Below, one piece after another: positions 11,675 to 19,940 of a DNA stretch of 48,879 bases (position 1 is the stretch's first letter; every line of letters starts with the position of its first letter). Below the pieces are notes generated by a model. It was not told the origin of the DNA. It saw only the letters and a program-made list of their open reading frames with translations, and did not search any database. The position numbers were made by a program, and so were the translations under genes. The stretch comes from a bacterium (GTDB taxonomy: Bacteria > Actinomycetota > Thermoleophilia > Solirubrobacterales > Solirubrobacteraceae), in contig JAJPKQ010000024.1 in the NCBI GenBank assembly GCA_021323635.1, positions 1 to 48,879 of the forward strand, read 5' to 3'.

Positions 11675-12454
11675 ATGAGCATGCGCGAGGACTACGGGCA
11701 CGCAAACGAGGCAAACGGCTCAAGCTCGAGCCCGCCGAAGGGCGCACGCGGTCCGATCGGCCGCTTCGTCAAGTACACCTTCCTCAGCGTCGACCCGGCC
11801 TGGCGCAGGCTCCCCGCCGAGGAGCGGGCACAGGGAAAGCGGGAGCTGATCGCAGCCTGCGAGGACTTTGCACAGGACCATCTGCTGCAGTCCTTCTCGC
11901 TTGTTGGCATGCGCGCCGATGCTGAGCTGCTGCTGGTGGCAGAGGCCGAGAACCTCGAGCGCATCCACGAGCTCCATGTCGTCCTTGCGCAGAGCGGGCT
12001 GATGAAGTGGGCGCGCGTCACCGCGTCCTTCCTGGGGCTGCGCAAGGGATCTGAGTACTCCGAAGAGCTGCGCCTGCGCGGGCGCTCCTTCCGCGGCAAG
12101 TACCTCTTCGTCTACCCCTTCATCAAGAGCCGGGAGTGGTATGGGCTGCCCGCGGGGGAGCGCTACCGGATCATGCAAGAGCACATCCGCATCGGCAAGG
12201 AGTACCCGCAGGTCGACAACCACACGACCTACTCCTTCGGGCTCGACGACCAGGAGTTCGTGGTCGCCTTCGACACCGATGACCCGGCGGCGTTTCTGGA
12301 GCTCGTGCAGCGCCTGCGCGGAACTGAGGCCTCCAGCTACACGGTGCGCGACACGCCCTCCTACACCTGCATCTCCGCATCGCTGCTGCGCGCGGTCAAC
12401 GCCTTGGACGGCGAGCCGCTTCCTGCCTCGGCAGACCTCGAAGCAGCCGCCTGA
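11675..12454 (+). CDS. hemQ: Coproheme decarboxylase/chlorite dismutase-family protein
   Basis: HemQ converts coproheme III to protoheme by two oxidative decarboxylations in the Gram-positive (coproporphyrin-dependent) heme pathway. The 259-residue frame matches the family: FVKYTFLSVDPAWRRLP at the start of the first ferredoxin-like half, then YPFIKSREWYGLP carrying the reactive Tyr region, and DNHTTYSFGLDDQEFVVAFD with the proximal heme His near residue 183. True chlorite dismutases have a distal Arg in a different context, so decarboxylase is preferred. ATG at 11675 was chosen because it follows TAACCT by eleven bases; a second ATG lies six bases later. The N-terminal 30 residues are low complexity. 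No other heme-pathway gene is seen in the window. Confidence 0.92.
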   Translation: MSMREDYGHANEANGSSSSPPKGARGPIGRFVKYTFLSVDPAWRRLPAEERAQGKRELIAACEDFAQDHLLQSFSLVGMRADAELLLVAEAENLERIHELHVVLAQSGLMKWARVTASFLGLRKGSEYSEELRLRGRSFRGKYLFVYPFIKSREWYGLPAGERYRIMQEHIRIGKEYPQVDNHTTYSFGLDDQEFVVAFDTDDPAAFLELVQRLRGTEASSYTVRDTPSYTCISASLLRAVNALDGEPLPASADLEAAA

Positions 12455-13096: not shown

Positions 13097-13371
13097 TCAT
13101 GCCGCTGAGCCTCTCATATAACTGGTCCGAGGAATGGGGTTCAGATCACCTGGTCCAGTTTTTGGGGTGCAGATCAGCCAGGCCGCCGCGAACTTCGCCC
13201 ACGGCATCATGCAAGGCGCTGAGTGCGGCCGCCTGAGGTTGTAGTCCTCCTGCCAGTCGGCGACAATGACCTTCGCCTCGGCCAGGCTCAAGAGCAGCTC
13301 CTCGTGCACCGGCGAGCCGAAAGACTCGACGTAGGGGCTATGCCAGGTGCCGCCGGGCTCGATGTAGCATG
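13097..13371 (-). pseudogene. Remnant of IS3-family transposase (OrfB C-terminal end)
   Basis: On the minus strand the frame reads CYIEPGGTWHSPYVESFG, then EELLLSLAEAKVIVADW, then DYNLRRPHSAPCMMPWAKF. This is the end of the rve/DDE domain of IS3-type transposases (consensus YIEPGSPWENPYVESF and YNxxRPHSALGxxxPAEF), including the catalytic Glu of VESF. The usual HSALG and PAEF motifs are altered to HSAPC and WAKF, and everything upstream (DDE Asp residues, OrfA) is missing, so it is a dead fragment. Its last 25 codons run into end-like repeats. It sits between hemQ and a sensor kinase and marks a past insertion. Confidence 0.85.
13122..13176. repeat. Two imperfect 27-bp direct repeats at the IS3 remnant
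   Basis: Copy 1 (13122-13148) and copy 2 (13150-13176) both begin CTGGTCC and end CAGATCA with GGGG between. Read on the minus strand, copy 2 is TGATCTGCACCCCAAAAACT followed by GGACCAG, which resembles terminal repeats of IS150-type IS3 elements. They probably represent element ends. Confidence 0.6.
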
Positions 13372-13419: not shown

Positions 13420-14589
13420 CTACGCCCCAAGCTGCGCCAGCGGCACGACCAGACGCACGGTGGCGCCCCGGCCGGGCTGAGACTCCAGCTGCAGCTCGCC
13501 ACCGACCAGCTCAGCGCGTTCCCTCATTCCCGGCAGGCCGTAGCCGCCATAGCGGCGCTCAGCGCTCTCCTGCGCCTCCACGCCCTTGCCGGGCTGCGCC
13601 GCACTCGACTCCCGCGCCTCCCGGGCGCCCTGCAACAGTCGCTCGGGGTGCTCGATGCCGCTGCCGTTGTCCTGGATCTCGACGACCAGGTCGCCCTCTC
13701 GGACAAAGACGCGAACGTCGGCCCTCGTGGCGTGCGCATGGCGCGAGGCGTTGGATAGCGCCTCCTGGATGATGCGGTAGATCGTCGTCTCAAGCTCGCC
13801 GTCCAAGCGCCCCTCCTGCTCCTGCGCCTGCGCCGGCAGCGAGAGCTCAAGCGCGACCTCGAGCCCATAGACATCCTGGGCCCGGCGGGCAAGCGCGGCA
13901 AGCGCCGCCTCCAGCCCGAGGTCGTCGAGCGCTGCGGGGCGAAGCTCGGTGATCAGGTGGCGGATCGAGACCACCTCGCGGTTGAGCCCTTCGATCACCT
14001 GGTCGGCGGCCGCGAGCACCTGCTGGGGGTCGCCGCTGTCACGGGCGTTCGCAAGTGTCATGCGTAGAGCTCCGAGGCCCTGAACGGTGTCGTCATGAAG
14101 CTCGCGCGCCCAGCGCGCGCGCTCCCGCTCGCGCTGCTGAACGCCGTAGCGAAGCCGTTCCTGCTCCGCCAGACGCTCCGCGGCAAGGCGCTGCGTGAGG
14201 TTTGCCGCAAGCGCCGCAAACGCGCTCATGTCGGCGTCGCGGAAGGACTCTTCGCGACGCACCGCCACAAGCATGCCACCACCGGGCTGACCTGTCTCAA
14301 GCGGCTGGATCAACGCTGGCCCCGCCTCGAGCCCGAGCTCCCTAAGCCAGTCCGCCTGCGCGCCGAGCGGGCGCTCGAAGGCAAGCGGCTTGCCCTGACG
14401 ATAGATCGTCCCGAGCGCGCTGCCTTCGATCGGCACGACACGCGCGCGCGCCGCCCGCTCAGGGCTTGCTGCGACCACGTGCAGCTCCCGATCGGCCTCA
14501 AGGATCACCAGCACGATCGAGGGGTCCAAGAGCCTTCGGGCACGATCTGCCATCAGCTCCAGAAGCCATCGCTCACCCCTCGTCGCCAT
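13420..14589 (-). CDS. NarL-family sensor histidine kinase with GAF domain
   Basis: About 389 residues, no membrane segment, so a cytosolic sensor. Residues about 20-170 form a GAF-like input domain (RRLLDPSIVLVILEADRE onward). A coiled linker (RLRYGVQQRERERARW) leads to the HisKA_3 dimerisation helix with the phospho-acceptor His in ARELHDDTVQGLGALR. The HATPase domain carries the N box EALSNASRHAHA and the G1 box VEIQDNGSGI, with YGGYGLPGMRERAELVGG as G2. The start ATG at 14589 is seven bases after TACCAT (minus strand 14602-14597), so the message is probably leaderless. No response regulator is adjacent. It is divergent from the HD-GYP fusion gene, which suggests a functional link but does not prove one. 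Confidence 0.9.
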   Translation of the reverse strand: MATRGERWLLELMADRARRLLDPSIVLVILEADRELHVVAASPERAARARVVPIEGSALGTIYRQGKPLAFERPLGAQADWLRELGLEAGPALIQPLETGQPGGGMLVAVRREESFRDADMSAFAALAANLTQRLAAERLAEQERLRYGVQQRERERARWARELHDDTVQGLGALRMTLANARDSGDPQQVLAAADQVIEGLNREVVSIRHLITELRPAALDDLGLEAALAALARRAQDVYGLEVALELSLPAQAQEQEGRLDGELETTIYRIIQEALSNASRHAHATRADVRVFVREGDLVVEIQDNGSGIEHPERLLQGAREARESSAAQPGKGVEAQESAERRYGGYGLPGMRERAELVGGELQLESQPGRGATVRLVVPLAQLGA

Positions 14590-14735
14590 CCTGCCGATGG
14601 TAGCGAAGATGCAATCCGAAAGCCTGATGCGCCCCGATAGCGCCCGCGCTCCCCTGCCCCCCGACGGCAATCCGTGAACATTGTGCAGCTGTGTGCAAGC
14701 GTAAATCCGTCCTCAGGCACGCTACGGTAATGCCG
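14590..14735. promoter_or_regulatory. Divergent promoter region of kinase and HD-GYP fusion gene
   Basis: 146 bases. Minus-strand TACCAT (14602-14597) and plus-strand TACGGT (14723-14728) each end exactly seven bases before an ATG (14589 and 14736). Both genes therefore look leaderless. No ribosome binding site is seen on either side. Confidence 0.5.
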
Positions 14736-17700
14736 ATGTGGCTCGCCGATGCCCCCAGATTGCGGAGGGTCGTCCTTGCCTACAGCCTCAGTGAGCTGGG
14801 CGGATGGTTTGCAATGGTCGCGCTGCCGCTCGCGATTTACAGCCACACACACAGCTCGCTCGCAGTCGGTGGCCTGCTTGCTGCCGGCTCGCTGCCCGCA
14901 GCACTCGCCCCGGCGATCGTCGCGCGCGTGGAGATGATGGAGCGCCGCGGCGGTATTGCGCTGCTCTTTCTGATCGCAGGAGTTGCGGCCGGGCTTCTGG
15001 CGCTGCTCCTATGGCACTTCTGGCTGCCGGTGATCTTTCCAGTCTTCGCGCTCCAGAATGGCGCGACCTTCGCGGGCGTTGCGATGCTACGCGCCGAGGG
15101 CGTACATCCGCACAATCCCATCGCGCCACAGCATCACGATGGCGATTTCTCACTTCATTTGGCAGCTCGTCAAGTCCCCCCGGGAGACTATCCAGACGCG
15201 ACGCCGGCCGATGAGGTAGACACCGCCACACCGCATCAAGAGACCATACACAGAGCCAACGCAGCCTTTAATCTCGCGATGTCGCTGGCGATGGTAATCG
15301 GGCCTGCAACAGCTGGCCTCGCTGTTACCGCCCTCCATCCTCCGCTCGCCATGCTTATCGCAGCCGCCGCACTCGCCGCAGCTGCCGCTCCAATTCTAAG
15401 CCTTGATCTCTATCGCATCCGCGATACGCAGACAACTGTCCGCGCGCTTCTAGCACAAGCGGCCAACCACCTGCGCAGCAGCCCACACGTCGGGCCGCTA
15501 CTGCGAGCCGAGGCACTAGCACTTCTCTTCTTCACGGCCGTCGTTCCCCTTGACGTCGCCTATTCCAAATCCACGCTCCGTGCTGGCGCCGCCGGCTATG
15601 CCGCATTGATAGGGGTCTGGGGTGCTGGAATGATCGCAGGCAGCATAACCTTCGCACGATATCGTCGTCCCCCCGCGCGAGCTCGCTCTCGACTCCGCCC
15701 ACCTCCGTCTCTCAGCCTTTTCCTCTCTGTCGGCACTGCAGCAGTTGCGCTCGCATACATCGGATTCTTCGCTGCACCGGCTCTGCCCGATGCCCTGATT
15801 GCTGCCTTTGCAGGAGGCGCTGGCAATGGGATTCAGTGGGCCGCATTCCTCGGCATCGTTCAAGTCCTGACTCCCAGGACGCTGCTCGCCCGAACAATGG
15901 CTGCAACTGAAGCGTTGCGTGCTACGACCCCATTTCTTGGAGTGCTTTTTGGGGGAGTTCTTGCTACCGTGTACTCAACGCGCGTTGCCTTCCTCATCGC
16001 CGGTGCCGGCACAACTGGTGCACTCGCATTCCTCGTACGCACTGTTCTCAAGCCCCTGATGAGCGACGCTCCTTCTGATCCAACGCTCGCTCCCGCTCGA
16101 ACTGCTCGCCCCGCAACTCCAACAGAACAGGTTCAACAGCGCGTACAACCAAAACTCCCCATCTCTCCGCGCTCACTGCCACTTACCCTGATTCGCCTCA
16201 TACGCAGTAGGCACCTCTACTATGCCGTTAGTCTCGCTCTTCTTCTAGGAGCAATAATCGGTGCGATCATCACCGCGCGCGCAACTGAATGGGAACGCCT
16301 CCCACTCCTCGCCATTTTGACGATGTTGCTTCTGACCGGCGAGCTGATCCAAAGCATCATACAATCCAAGGCATACTCTGCGGGCTTTCTTGCCATCGCC
16401 TTCGCCGCGTGCCTACTAGGCCCGGCGCCAGCAGTCGCATTCGCTCTACTCGCTGCTATTCCTGCGACTCGTGAAAGAAGGCGTGCCCTGCGCTACTGGC
16501 TAGCAAATCTGAGCAGCGCTGCCATTGCGGCCTTCGCCGCTGCCAGTCTACTCCGGCTCGTGATCGTCCATGTGTACCACACGCCCGTCGACCGATTGCT
16601 TCCATCGATCAGCTTCGCCCCAGCTATCTTCGCAGTCCCATTTATTTTTGATACCCTCAACACTATCCTGATCTCCTGGTCTGGGACCGCGTTTTGGCAG
16701 ACTCCGATGCGAACGCAGCTGCGGACCCTCCTGTTGCCAACGTTACCCGTCCAAGCTGCGCTCGGGCTAATGGCTGCGATTGTCGTCATTGGATACGCTC
16801 GCATCGGACTTCCATTCTGGATACTCGCTTTTCCCGCTCTAATTGCCTTTCAACACCTGGCCGTCCAATTGGTACGCTCCGGTTCGCATCTCGATACTCT
16901 TCAGAGAGCTACCCCCGCCGACAGCTCTCGGAGCAAGATGCCCACATCTGCCGCGGCTCATGAGTCCGGTAGCCATGCTTTTACCTCGTCGCCACTGCCG
17001 ACGTCCAATGGCTCTGACCGCCAACGCAGCTCGTTTCCCCCTCGCAAGCGACTTGGCATGTACATGTTCTATTCGTGCACGAGCATTCTGGCCGGTGGCT
17101 CGCTTACGCTAGCAGCTATCACTACGCACAGCTACGAATGGACGCCCCTTGCGCTCTTCGCGTTGCTAGCTGGACTTGCCTTTTTTGGTGAGCAGCTCCA
17201 GATAACCATACACGGACAACCCCTCGCGGCCTCCTTCGTCGCCTACACGCTAGCCATGGTTCTACTCGGACCAGCGCCAGCAGTCGCAATCGGCGTGGCA
17301 ACAATGGTGTACACCTCCGCGAGGCGTCGTCTAGCGCCGCGCTTCTGGCTCGCCAACATCGCCATTCACTCCACCTACCTGTACGCTGGCGCTGCCCTGG
17401 CCCAGTCGCTAGCGGGCAATGTGCATTCCCAACATGCTGCTCATGCTGACCGAACCCTAGCGTTCGCCGAGATTGTCTTCCTGGTCTTCATGGTCAGCAT
17501 GCTTTTGAATTTTGTTCTTATTTCAATTGCTGCCAGAATACTTTGGCGCCGTCGGTTCGCTGACCAATTTCGCGAGCTCTTCTTGCCCGTTTTGCCAGCT
17601 CAGCTAGCGCTTGGCGTCCTGACAACCCTTGCCGCCATCGCCTACATGAACTTCGGCGTTTCGATTTTGCTAGGCGGCATTTTGCTGCTCGCACTGTTCC

Positions 17701-18527
17701 AATACCTCATGACTCGATTGGTCCGCTCCGAGGATCGACTGGCGCAGCTGGTTCAGGAGGCTCTACATCGCGCAACGATGGAGATCGGTGCTCTGTCTTT
17801 TACGATGCGCAGTCTCAATGCCCGCTTGAGCGACTCAGGCCGACACGCGGCGGCAGTTGCACTGTATGCGGAAGAGTTGCTTCGTCATCTCGATCGTCCC
17901 GAGTTCGAGCAGCACGTAGCCCATGCAGCAGGACTTTTTCACGACATAGGAATGACCGCAGTCCCAGATCATATATTCGAGTCGGACAAGGGTCTCGATG
18001 TATCCGACTGGGATGCGATCAGGCGCCATCCGATCGACGGGTCACACCTGATATCGCAGTTCCCAGACTATCGTGCAGCCGCCGATGCCATTATGTCGCA
18101 TCATGAGCGTTGGGACGGCACTGGCTATCCGGACGGCTTGATCGGTGGAGAGATTCCATTCCTGGCTCGCGTACTAGCAATATGTGAGGCGTACGATGTC
18201 ATGACCGCTGCCTCTTCATACGCTTGCATTGGCGATAGTAGTCGTGCTTTAGAAGAGATCCGAGCCAACTCCGGCTCACAGTTCGATCCTGAGCTTGCGG
18301 AAGCGTTCATCGCGCTGCGCATATCGGCAGATGATACGGTAATAGTCAACGCAAGCCTTGAGTCGGAGCTGGACAAGGAGAGAAGGATCCTGATCGGCCA
18401 CGCCAAGCCGTCGCCCAGTCACGAGCCGCCCAAATCAGCAGAGCGCACTGTTCGGAAAACAGTGCATATATGGAATACGGCCAAGCGACTCGGAACAAGC
18501 CAGCGCGGATCGCGGGTTGGCGCCTAG
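14736..18527 (+). CDS. Giant membrane protein: MFS-like domain, two tandem homologous membrane modules, HD-GYP domain
   Basis: About 1263 residues. Residues 1-440 resemble an MFS transporter (SELGGWFAMVALPLAIY at the start), with an unusual hydrophilic His/Asp/Pro-rich insert near residues 125-175. Residues about 488-723 and 775-1005 are two copies of one multi-pass module: each has LLGPAPAVA, an Arg-rich cytosolic loop, then RYWLAN or RFWLAN, and ends LVRSG/E-xx-L. Residues about 1010-1210 are an HD-GYP phosphodiesterase-like domain with His1069-Asp1070, His1122-His1123 and GYP at 1130-1132. Two canonical positions differ: HDIGK is HDIGM and the late metal-ligand Asp is Glu1151 (CEAYD). HD-GYP domains usually hydrolyse c-di-GMP. 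G+C is visibly lower than neighbours. Leaderless start at 14736; ATG at 14730 is possible. Ligand unknown. Confidence 0.85.
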   Translation: MWLADAPRLRRVVLAYSLSELGGWFAMVALPLAIYSHTHSSLAVGGLLAAGSLPAALAPAIVARVEMMERRGGIALLFLIAGVAAGLLALLLWHFWLPVIFPVFALQNGATFAGVAMLRAEGVHPHNPIAPQHHDGDFSLHLAARQVPPGDYPDATPADEVDTATPHQETIHRANAAFNLAMSLAMVIGPATAGLAVTALHPPLAMLIAAAALAAAAAPILSLDLYRIRDTQTTVRALLAQAANHLRSSPHVGPLLRAEALALLFFTAVVPLDVAYSKSTLRAGAAGYAALIGVWGAGMIAGSITFARYRRPPARARSRLRPPPSLSLFLSVGTAAVALAYIGFFAAPALPDALIAAFAGGAGNGIQWAAFLGIVQVLTPRTLLARTMAATEALRATTPFLGVLFGGVLATVYSTRVAFLIAGAGTTGALAFLVRTVLKPLMSDAPSDPTLAPARTARPATPTEQVQQRVQPKLPISPRSLPLTLIRLIRSRHLYYAVSLALLLGAIIGAIITARATEWERLPLLAILTMLLLTGELIQSIIQSKAYSAGFLAIAFAACLLGPAPAVAFALLAAIPATRERRRALRYWLANLSSAAIAAFAAASLLRLVIVHVYHTPVDRLLPSISFAPAIFAVPFIFDTLNTILISWSGTAFWQTPMRTQLRTLLLPTLPVQAALGLMAAIVVIGYARIGLPFWILAFPALIAFQHLAVQLVRSGSHLDTLQRATPADSSRSKMPTSAAAHESGSHAFTSSPLPTSNGSDRQRSSFPPRKRLGMYMFYSCTSILAGGSLTLAAITTHSYEWTPLALFALLAGLAFFGEQLQITIHGQPLAASFVAYTLAMVLLGPAPAVAIGVATMVYTSARRRLAPRFWLANIAIHSTYLYAGAALAQSLAGNVHSQHAAHADRTLAFAEIVFLVFMVSMLLNFVLISIAARILWRRRFADQFRELFLPVLPAQLALGVLTTLAAIAYMNFGVSILLGGILLLALFQYLMTRLVRSEDRLAQLVQEALHRATMEIGALSFTMRSLNARLSDSGRHAAAVALYAEELLRHLDRPEFEQHVAHAAGLFHDIGMTAVPDHIFESDKGLDVSDWDAIRRHPIDGSHLISQFPDYRAAADAIMSHHERWDGTGYPDGLIGGEIPFLARVLAICEAYDVMTAASSYACIGDSSRALEEIRANSGSQFDPELAEAFIALRISADDTVIVNASLESELDKERRILIGHAKPSPSHEPPKSAERTVRKTVHIWNTAKRLGTSQRGSRVGA

Positions 18528-19940
18528 CCGCCAGCGTCAAATCTGATTCTAGCTTTCCTCGCTGTGCATCACGCGGCCACAGACACCCGCTACGGGCCAG
18601 CAGCGCAACCGCTCGACGCCTCTTCTCATACGGCGGCCGAAAGGCTCCGGTCTAGTTTGCCGCGGAAGCCTACCCCGGATTCCGCAGCTGTTGCGCTGAG
18701 CGCACTCGTCGGTCTTGCCTGTATCAGAGGCTCTAAGCGGACACGGCTCCGTTGTTATCGGTCGGCCTTTGAGGTTAGCTGCTGGAGGTGATCGTGGAGC
18801 GCTCGGAAGAGCTGACTGCACCCAAATCTGAGGAGAGCGCGTGCATGCGTCTGCCGGCTCCCGCCGACTCGCGCTTGTCGGAGCTCCGCCACTTCTCCGT
18901 CATTGTCAGCGGGCTATCGGTGTTGCATGACTAGTTACCGCCCACAGCGGCCGCGATGTCGCGACAAAGACAAGCCGCGCCTACTGGCCGCCGATGCCGC
19001 ACGTACTCCTGCCCTGACCGCTTAGCTGATCTAATCGCTTGCACGGCCTCAAGCGTTCCGCATGGTGGCAAACTCAGCCTGGGTAATGGCATCTGCAGGC
19101 AGATTCTTTGCGCCCTACGCGATGCCCATTCATGCGTTTCAAAGCGCTCAGGCACGCCATCACACCGCAGGCAGGACTGGCGGCCTGAGCGCTATCTATC
19201 TCTGTTTAGAAACGCCAAGACACCTGTATTCCTCCTTTGGTGATGCACCGAGACTCGTGCGGACTGGCCTTCAAACGTCAAGCCACCGACACTGCTCAGC
19301 TAGGAAGTGGAACGAACATAGATATAGGCCGGATTGAGTAGGTTTGATTAGAGTTGCACAGCTTTATGCAGGTTTTATTGCAAAATGCGGATTCGTGAGA
19401 AACAGCGTGCGCCCACGCCGATCCGACCTCTGGTAATGGCCTCACGACTGGCGCGCATCCCACCCGGCTTTCCGGCGCCGTCATCGTCCGGCCAGCGGTG
19501 GTCGATCCTCTCCTGCCAATGATCGAACGGCCAGTGACCTGACCGTCCGCCCGCCAGTGCTGCTATTTGCGCAGCTGATCGTGCCGGTCAGATAGCGACT
19601 GAAATGCCGCCACGGCGTCGCCTGGTTGGCCGGCTACGTGGCGCGTGGTCGCTGCCCGACCGTCCGCCGGGACTGCACATTCGAGGCGACGGCCGCCCCG
19701 CGCCCAGCAAGCGGCATCCCTCAGACACGGCCGAACACCCCCTGGCGATGAAGACGCTGTGACACGTAGAAGAGGTTGCGCGCCTATGCGTCGGCACATA
19801 CGCATGGAGCCCCGATGAGCTCGGCACGCGCGTCCCCGACCGCGGGCGACAACCGCCGACACGGGTCGCGCCGGAGCCTCCTGGGACGTGGCGCTGCGCG
19901 ATGCCCGCGTATTCGCGAGCATCGCTTCCATCAGCCTCCG
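18528..19940. other. 1.4-kb region without a recognisable gene
   Basis: Mixed composition, partly AT-richer (for example around 19320-19400). Many open frames under 125 codons occur on both strands and in several frames, none with recognisable sequence, a good start signal or consistent third-position G+C. No tRNA-like cloverleaf, element ends or long repeats were found by eye. It follows the lower-G+C HD-GYP fusion gene and may be decayed or acquired DNA. Confidence 0.5.

What the first reader, a model, noticed from the sequence alone, without database searches (positions are those of the whole stretch)
14736..18527. MFS-like domain + two tandem membrane modules + HD-GYP in one protein
Seen: one uninterrupted frame of about 1263 codons with an MFS-like half, two homologous multi-pass modules (both with LLGPAPAVA, an Arg-rich loop, R-Y/F-WLAN and a closing LVRS) and a C-terminal HD-GYP domain. 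Known: HD-GYP domains hydrolyse c-di-GMP and are often coupled to membrane sensors, but I know of no named family joining an MFS domain and a duplicated module. Inference: a transporter-like sensor whose state is passed through two repeated membrane relays to a second-messenger enzyme.
Basis: partly seen in the sequence, partly recalled or inferred. Interest (0 to 1): 0.88.

Follow-up and report, generated by a model that had tools for sequence, protein, structure and literature searches.

The report
Transporter fused to duplicated membrane receptor, HD-GYP
One soil bacterium has joined, into a single giant membrane protein, a transporter-like domain, two copies of a vitamin-transporter-like receptor domain and a signalling-enzyme domain that its relatives keep as two neighbouring genes, which suggests that the transporter and the signalling receptor work together, although here the enzyme end has lost residues normally needed for activity.

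Summary
In detail: window 14691-18527 (+) is one open frame of 1278 codons (1263 from ATG 14736) encoding MFS - module A - module B - HD-GYP. The modules align over 239 residues (33% identity, E 1e-40). AlphaFold gives the MFS fold, and gives module A the S-component fold of ECF vitamin/metal transporters, which is also the fold of 5TMR receptors. By sequence the modules are weakly MASE9-like. In 20 genomes of the same genus the MFS protein and a single-module HD-GYP protein are usually adjacent but separate genes. The pairing recurs across two families of Solirubrobacterales, tandem or divergent, and in one genus the HD-GYP is replaced by GGDEF-EAL. So the real finding is a conserved MFS/S-fold-receptor pair controlling c-di-GMP; the window carries its only fused form found, with a lineage-specific module duplication. 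The gene has low GC3 and a fast-evolving HD-GYP domain, so remodelling or early decay remain open. Closest precedents: UhpC-UhpB, CbrA (SLC5-kinase) and NRAMP-5TMR fusions. New variant of a known kind.

The parts
14691..18527 (+). Whole fused ORF, 1278 aa from GTG 14691; the likelier start is ATG 14736 (1263 aa), near where homologous MFS proteins begin
14736..16070 (+). MFS domain, residues 16-460, DHA3-like (TIGR00900/MFS_3 group), with a longer low-complexity loop near residues 136-185
16071..16205 (+). Linker 1 (residues 461-505), low model confidence; in same-genus kin this is the intergenic gap with the MFS stop codon. No start codon between Met457 and module A
16206..16904 (+). Module A: extra S-component-fold (MASE9-like) receptor domain, residues 506-738, fast-evolving copy
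16905..17051 (+). Linker 2 (residues 739-787), low complexity, no HD-GYP remnant seen
17052..17755 (+). Module B: orthologous S-component-fold (MASE9-like) receptor domain, residues 788-1021, continuing into a long helix
17811..18296 (+). HD-GYP domain (PF13487), residues 1041-1202; metal-ligand histidines, HD and GYP kept; D183 and K225 equivalents lost
17826..17828 (+). L1046, where 32 of 32 relatives have Asp (PmGH D183)
17952..17954 (+). M1088 (HDIGM), where 31 of 32 relatives have Lys (PmGH K225)
13420..14670 (-). Divergent GAF-HisKA_3 histidine kinase; its orthologue lies beside the MFS/HD-GYP pair in all ten kin loci examined (49-56% identity)

Best explanation
The ORF is a lineage-specific fusion of a conserved two-gene signalling pair of Solirubrobacterales: (1) a DHA3-like MFS protein and (2) a membrane receptor with the S-component fold that carries a c-di-GMP-turnover domain. 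Most likely the MFS protein binds or moves a ligand, and its state, or the ligand it handles, is read by the S-fold receptor, whose last helix drives the cytoplasmic domain, much as UhpC informs UhpB. In the window lineage the receptor domain was duplicated and the stop codon between the genes was lost, so MFS, receptor A, receptor B and HD-GYP are one polypeptide whose membrane parts can all begin and end in the cytoplasm. The HD-GYP end has lost two residues needed for hydrolysis in PmGH, so it is more likely a weak or inactive phosphodiesterase, or a c-di-GMP-binding output, than an ordinary enzyme. Shown: frame, domains, duplication, genomic pairing, output swapping, residue losses. Inferred: physical coupling, direction of signalling, ligand, loss of activity.
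For: Frame and domains. Predicted folds: MFS and HD-GYP, S-component fold for module A (pLDDT 90; the 22 best VIA rows are all ECF-type S-components or the related NikM/CbiM, Z 8.2-13.4, next unrelated row 6.7). Same-genus pairs are separate genes: tandem, MFS first, mostly about 40-180 nt apart where both are complete; in kin G006 a single in-frame TAG separates them. Family survey: 57 of 79 strong module hits (two of them the window's own) lie within 3 kb of the MFS subfamily, 30 tandem, 25 divergent, 2 convergent; 53 of 67 strong MFS hits are linked. Second family f3: all 10 loci of the first set with the module-HD-GYP gene show the MFS neighbour. Output swap to GGDEF-EAL in genus g39. Modules A and B are sisters inside the genus (96/94). 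Positive charges alternate as expected for eight helices with both ends in the cytoplasm. Residue losses: with PmGH mutants in PMC4159591. Genome rich in GGDEF domains (32).
Against: No direct evidence of physical coupling or of a ligand. 22 of 79 strong module hits have no linked MFS: some at contig ends, but Solirubrobacter has extra unlinked paralogues, and one later f3 locus shows none (L173). Low GC3 (0.61, vs 0.85-0.90 in window genes used for comparison) and 20 of 61 conserved HD-GYP positions changed could mean early decay. AlphaFold gave no confident overall arrangement of the domains (pTM 0.54). In PmGH, R314A and K317A had little effect, so those losses alone say little.
Confidence: 0.5

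Rival explanations
1. The fusion is an early stage of gene decay: the locus lost its selective constraint, the stop between the genes disappeared, a module was duplicated and the HD-GYP degenerated; the long frame simply has not broken yet.
For: GC3 near intergenic level in a low-GC stretch 14.7-19.9 kb; most deviant of 33 sequences at conserved positions (28%); catalytic residues lost; the response regulator seen beside the kinase in kin is absent and a transposase-like fragment sits nearby; each linker would be stop-free by chance in about a third of cases.
Against: 3.8 kb with no stop or frameshift; module B differs at 1 of 18 conserved positions while HD-GYP differs at 20 of 61, which uniform drift would not give (Fisher p 0.03); all metal histidines, HD and GYP kept.
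Confidence: 0.27
2. The MFS domain is an ordinary exporter and the HD-GYP part regulates something else; the genes are neighbours only because they are co-regulated, and the fusion has no mechanistic meaning.
For: MFS scores best among drug/H+ antiporter-type models; a histidine kinase shares the locus.
Against: Pairing is kept through tandem, divergent and convergent arrangements and through a change of output domain, and one lineage fused the two.
Confidence: 0.15
3. Two proteins are made: an internal start (ATG 790 or 792) gives a separate module B-HD-GYP protein besides the fusion.
For: Met790/Met792 lie close to the N-terminus of homologous single-module proteins.
Against: No Shine-Dalgarno-like sequence is visible upstream of these codons, and module A has no start codon of its own after Met457.
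Confidence: 0.08

Closest known systems
UhpC-UhpB (MFS-type glucose-6-phosphate receptor with a membrane histidine kinase)
   Same: An MFS protein (own knowledge) working with a multi-pass membrane signalling protein; UhpC senses glucose-6-phosphate and activates UhpB (PMC8871633)
   Different: Output here is HD-GYP or GGDEF-EAL, not a kinase; the MFS is nearer TIGR00900/DHA3 models by sequence; here the two are fused
5TMR receptors with the S-component fold (Partipilo and Slotboom 2024, PMC11109136), including NRAMP-5TMR fusions
   Same: S-component-fold membrane receptor with varied signalling outputs, GGDEF and EAL among them; an N-terminal extra helix; NRAMP-5TMR was the only transporter fusion those authors reported
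   Different: No Pfam match to the 5TMR family was listed; an extra C-terminal helix (eight in all); HD-GYP output; an MFS partner at the N-terminus; receptor duplicated
MASE9 (PF20972)
   Same: Module A aligns over nearly the whole profile (19-197 of 203, E 6e-4); both models hit some of the same loci in the family
   Different: Below the curated cut-off; module B does not match
CbrA (SLC5 transporter domain fused to a histidine kinase)
   Same: Transporter domain fused to a signalling output in one polypeptide (PMC8871633)
   Different: Different transporter superfamily, no S-fold receptor domain between, kinase output
HD-GYP phosphodiesterases PmGH (4mcw) and PA4781 (4r8z)
   Same: Domain fold, HD and GYP motifs, metal-ligand histidines
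   Different: D183 and K225 equivalents are Leu and Met; D305 equivalent is Glu; R314/K317 equivalents lost

Membership tests
Major facilitator superfamily (DHA3-like, TIGR00900/MFS_3 group) | MFS fold | tested here: met
   AlphaFold model mostly about 90 pLDDT; Foldseek to G6PT, SotB, MdfA
Major facilitator superfamily (DHA3-like, TIGR00900/MFS_3 group) | Match above a curated family cut-off | tested here: inconclusive
   Window below the MFS_1 and MFS_3 cut-offs; orthologues above them
Major facilitator superfamily (DHA3-like, TIGR00900/MFS_3 group) | Transport activity | not testable with these tools
   needs an assay
S-component fold (ECF transporters / 5TMR receptors) | Six-helix S-component core | tested here: met
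   Module A model matches ThiT, RibU, PanT, BioY, NikM2 at Z 8.2-13.4 over about 150-188 residues; Foldseek E only 0.04
S-component fold (ECF transporters / 5TMR receptors) | AXXXA motif in helix 1, associated with assembly on an ECF module (PMC11109136) | tested here: not met
   Absent from the first core helix of modules A and B (read from the alignment): receptor-like rather than ECF-bound
MASE9 (PF20972) | Score over the curated cut-off of 24.3 bits | tested here: inconclusive
   Module A 20.2 bits over almost the whole profile; module B no match; some more distant relatives exceed the cut-off
HD-GYP c-di-GMP phosphodiesterase | HD and GYP motifs and metal-ligand histidines | tested here: met
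HD-GYP c-di-GMP phosphodiesterase | Active-site D183 and K225 (PmGH numbering), each essential in PmGH | tested here: not met
   L1046 and M1088
HD-GYP c-di-GMP phosphodiesterase | Hydrolysis of c-di-GMP | not testable with these tools
   needs an assay
UhpC-UhpB-type receptor pair | MFS protein encoded beside a multi-pass membrane signalling protein | tested here: met
UhpC-UhpB-type receptor pair | Histidine kinase as partner | tested here: not met
   Partner output is HD-GYP or GGDEF-EAL

The most novel reading that the evidence does not exclude
MFS protein plus S-component-fold receptor is a general two-part transceptor of Solirubrobacterales that controls c-di-GMP through interchangeable output domains, and the window shows its one-polypeptide form, with a duplicated receptor domain and a catalytically silent HD-GYP acting as a c-di-GMP-responsive output.
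Probability: 0.35. Interest if true: 0.75.

Novelty: new variant of a known kind. Interest (0 to 1): 0.56.

Why it matters
How multi-pass membrane receptors of c-di-GMP enzymes sense their signals is mostly unknown. A conserved partnership between a transporter-type protein and an S-component-fold receptor, with one natural fusion as a Rosetta stone, gives a concrete hypothesis (the transporter is the sensor) that can be tested by deleting one gene in a cultured Solirubrobacter. It also extends the 2024 transceptor idea (S-component fold shared by transporters and receptors) to HD-GYP outputs and to MFS partners.

Tried and rejected
Apparent MFS-module fusions in relatives (open frames of 900-1036 aa): those checked at sequence level are separate genes in different frames, genes split by stops, or contig-edge open frames. 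Sequencing or assembly merging: not supported (one frame, 33% identity between modules, both modules inside the genus tree), but there were no reads to check. ECF-module partners of the S-fold domains: not searched in the genome. Module-to-PDB sequence search: no hit to E 1. MASE1 and 5TMR Pfam families: not among the 25 families listed for the module members. Literature searches for MFS with HD-GYP or GGDEF, and for MASE9, gave nothing relevant; the library is open-access only. A column table for PmGH positions 183/185 was misaligned at its edge and was not used; those positions rest on the gapless pairwise alignment and on the alignment.

Full report
Observation. ORF 14691-18527 (+) is open for 1278 codons, while the other five frames carry 26-55 stops in the same stretch. 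HMM and BLAST checks give MFS (residues about 16-460), module A (506-738), module B (788-1021) and HD-GYP (1041-1202) in one frame. The two modules align over 239 residues at 33% identity (E 1e-40) and are both found end to end by a profile built without them.

What the parts are. The MFS part is a complete MFS fold (AlphaFold mostly about 90 pLDDT), nearest in sequence to TIGR00900/DHA3-type exporter models. Module A, folded with 25 relatives, is confident (pLDDT 90) and its 22 best structural matches are all S-components of ECF transporters or the related NikM/CbiM proteins (Z 8.2-13.4, next unrelated row 6.7; Foldseek ranks the same group first, though only at E 0.04). That is the fold Partipilo and Slotboom (PMC11109136) showed to be shared with 5TMR receptors. 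In sequence, module A reaches MASE9 at E 6e-4 over nearly the whole profile, below the cut-off. The models have eight helices per module, and K+R counts alternate so that both ends lie in the cytoplasm; MFS, A and B can therefore be chained without topological conflict. If all eight helices span, the S-core would be inverted relative to ECF S-components; this is unverified.

Family context. In the same genus (Palsa-744-like Solirubrobacteraceae; record titles) 19 other genomes carry the module, one copy each. Where both genes are complete on a contig, the MFS gene lies just upstream of a single-module HD-GYP gene as a separate gene; in G006 a single in-frame TAG separates them. A GAF-HisKA_3 kinase is a third conserved neighbour, and a LuxR-type response regulator was found in the three loci that were annotated. 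Across the family (146 genomes) 57 of 79 strong module hits lie within 3 kb of the same MFS subfamily in tandem, divergent or convergent order, and 53 of 67 strong MFS hits are linked (the window contributes two of the 57). With about 26 MFS-like candidates in 2.6 Mb chance would give only a few percent; this is a rough estimate, not a test. In a second family of the order all ten module-HD-GYP loci of the first set show the pair; of three loci fetched later one does not (L173). In genus g39 the module carries GGDEF-EAL instead, and the MFS neighbour is present in most of those loci. Among 232 genomes of the order and a sample of 396 of the phylum, no other frame with two modules or an MFS-module fusion was seen; the long-frame candidates that were fetched proved to be separate genes.

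Origin of the window form. Modules A and B are sisters (96/94) inside the genus, with A on a branch of 1.42 and B on 0.5 against a median of 0.3. The simplest history is a duplication of the receptor domain plus loss of the stop between the genes in this lineage. Long-branch effects on A's exact place cannot be excluded.

The enzyme end. All metal-ligand histidines, HD and GYP are kept. In PmGH, alanine at D183 or K225 abolished activity (PMC4159591); the window has L1046 and M1088 there, while 32 of 32 and 31 of 32 relatives keep Asp and Lys. The D305 equivalent is Glu, but this position is variable in the genus. The window deviates at 20 of 61 conserved HD-GYP positions but at 1 of 18 in module B. 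Relative G011 is also degenerate (HE for HD, Tyr for H250), so loss of catalysis may have happened more than once.

Mechanism and its limits. I think the MFS protein is the sensor or ligand-handling partner of the S-fold receptor, which acts through its last helix on a c-di-GMP domain; UhpC-UhpB is the closest working precedent and CbrA a precedent for a transporter-output fusion (PMC8871633). Adjacency, output swapping and fusion are shown; contact, ligand, direction of signalling and loss of activity are inferred. Low GC3 (0.61), the low-GC stretch 14.7-19.9 kb and fast evolution keep early decay alive as the main rival.

Verdict. The fused protein is a new variant of known kinds; the conserved pair behind it is the more interesting and more testable discovery.

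Noticed in passing
window 13097-13309 (-): 70-aa ORF resembling the C-terminal end of an IS3-type transposase (HEELLLSLAEAKVIVADWQEDYNLRRPHSA...), beside the histidine kinase; identified by eye only.
   Followed up: no
window 18530-19940: 1.4 kb with no convincing ORF and about 60% GC against about 70% around it; continues the low-GC stretch that begins at the fused gene.
   Followed up: partly
L019 (G011), HD-GYP domain: A second degenerate HD-GYP in the genus: HD is HE and the H250 equivalent is Tyr.
   Followed up: partly
L110, L111, L143, L144 (Solirubrobacter): Two tandem module-HD-GYP genes divergent from one MFS gene, a possible model of how a duplication could begin.
   Followed up: partly
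L104-L109, L115-L117 (genus g39): The same module on long proteins without HD-GYP (GGDEF-EAL confirmed by Pfam for L104, L105, L106, L115), with the same MFS neighbour in most of these loci.
   Followed up: yes
L113:5431-7770 (-) (G062): A distant module on a HisKA_3 histidine kinase.
   Followed up: no
G000 whole genome: 32 GGDEF domains and five further HD-GYP matches in a 2.6 Mb genome.
   Followed up: no
window 11700-12454 (+): Chlorite dismutase/HemQ-like protein (PF06778, E 2e-48) about 2.2 kb upstream of the fused gene; no match to it in the ten kin loci examined.
   Followed up: no
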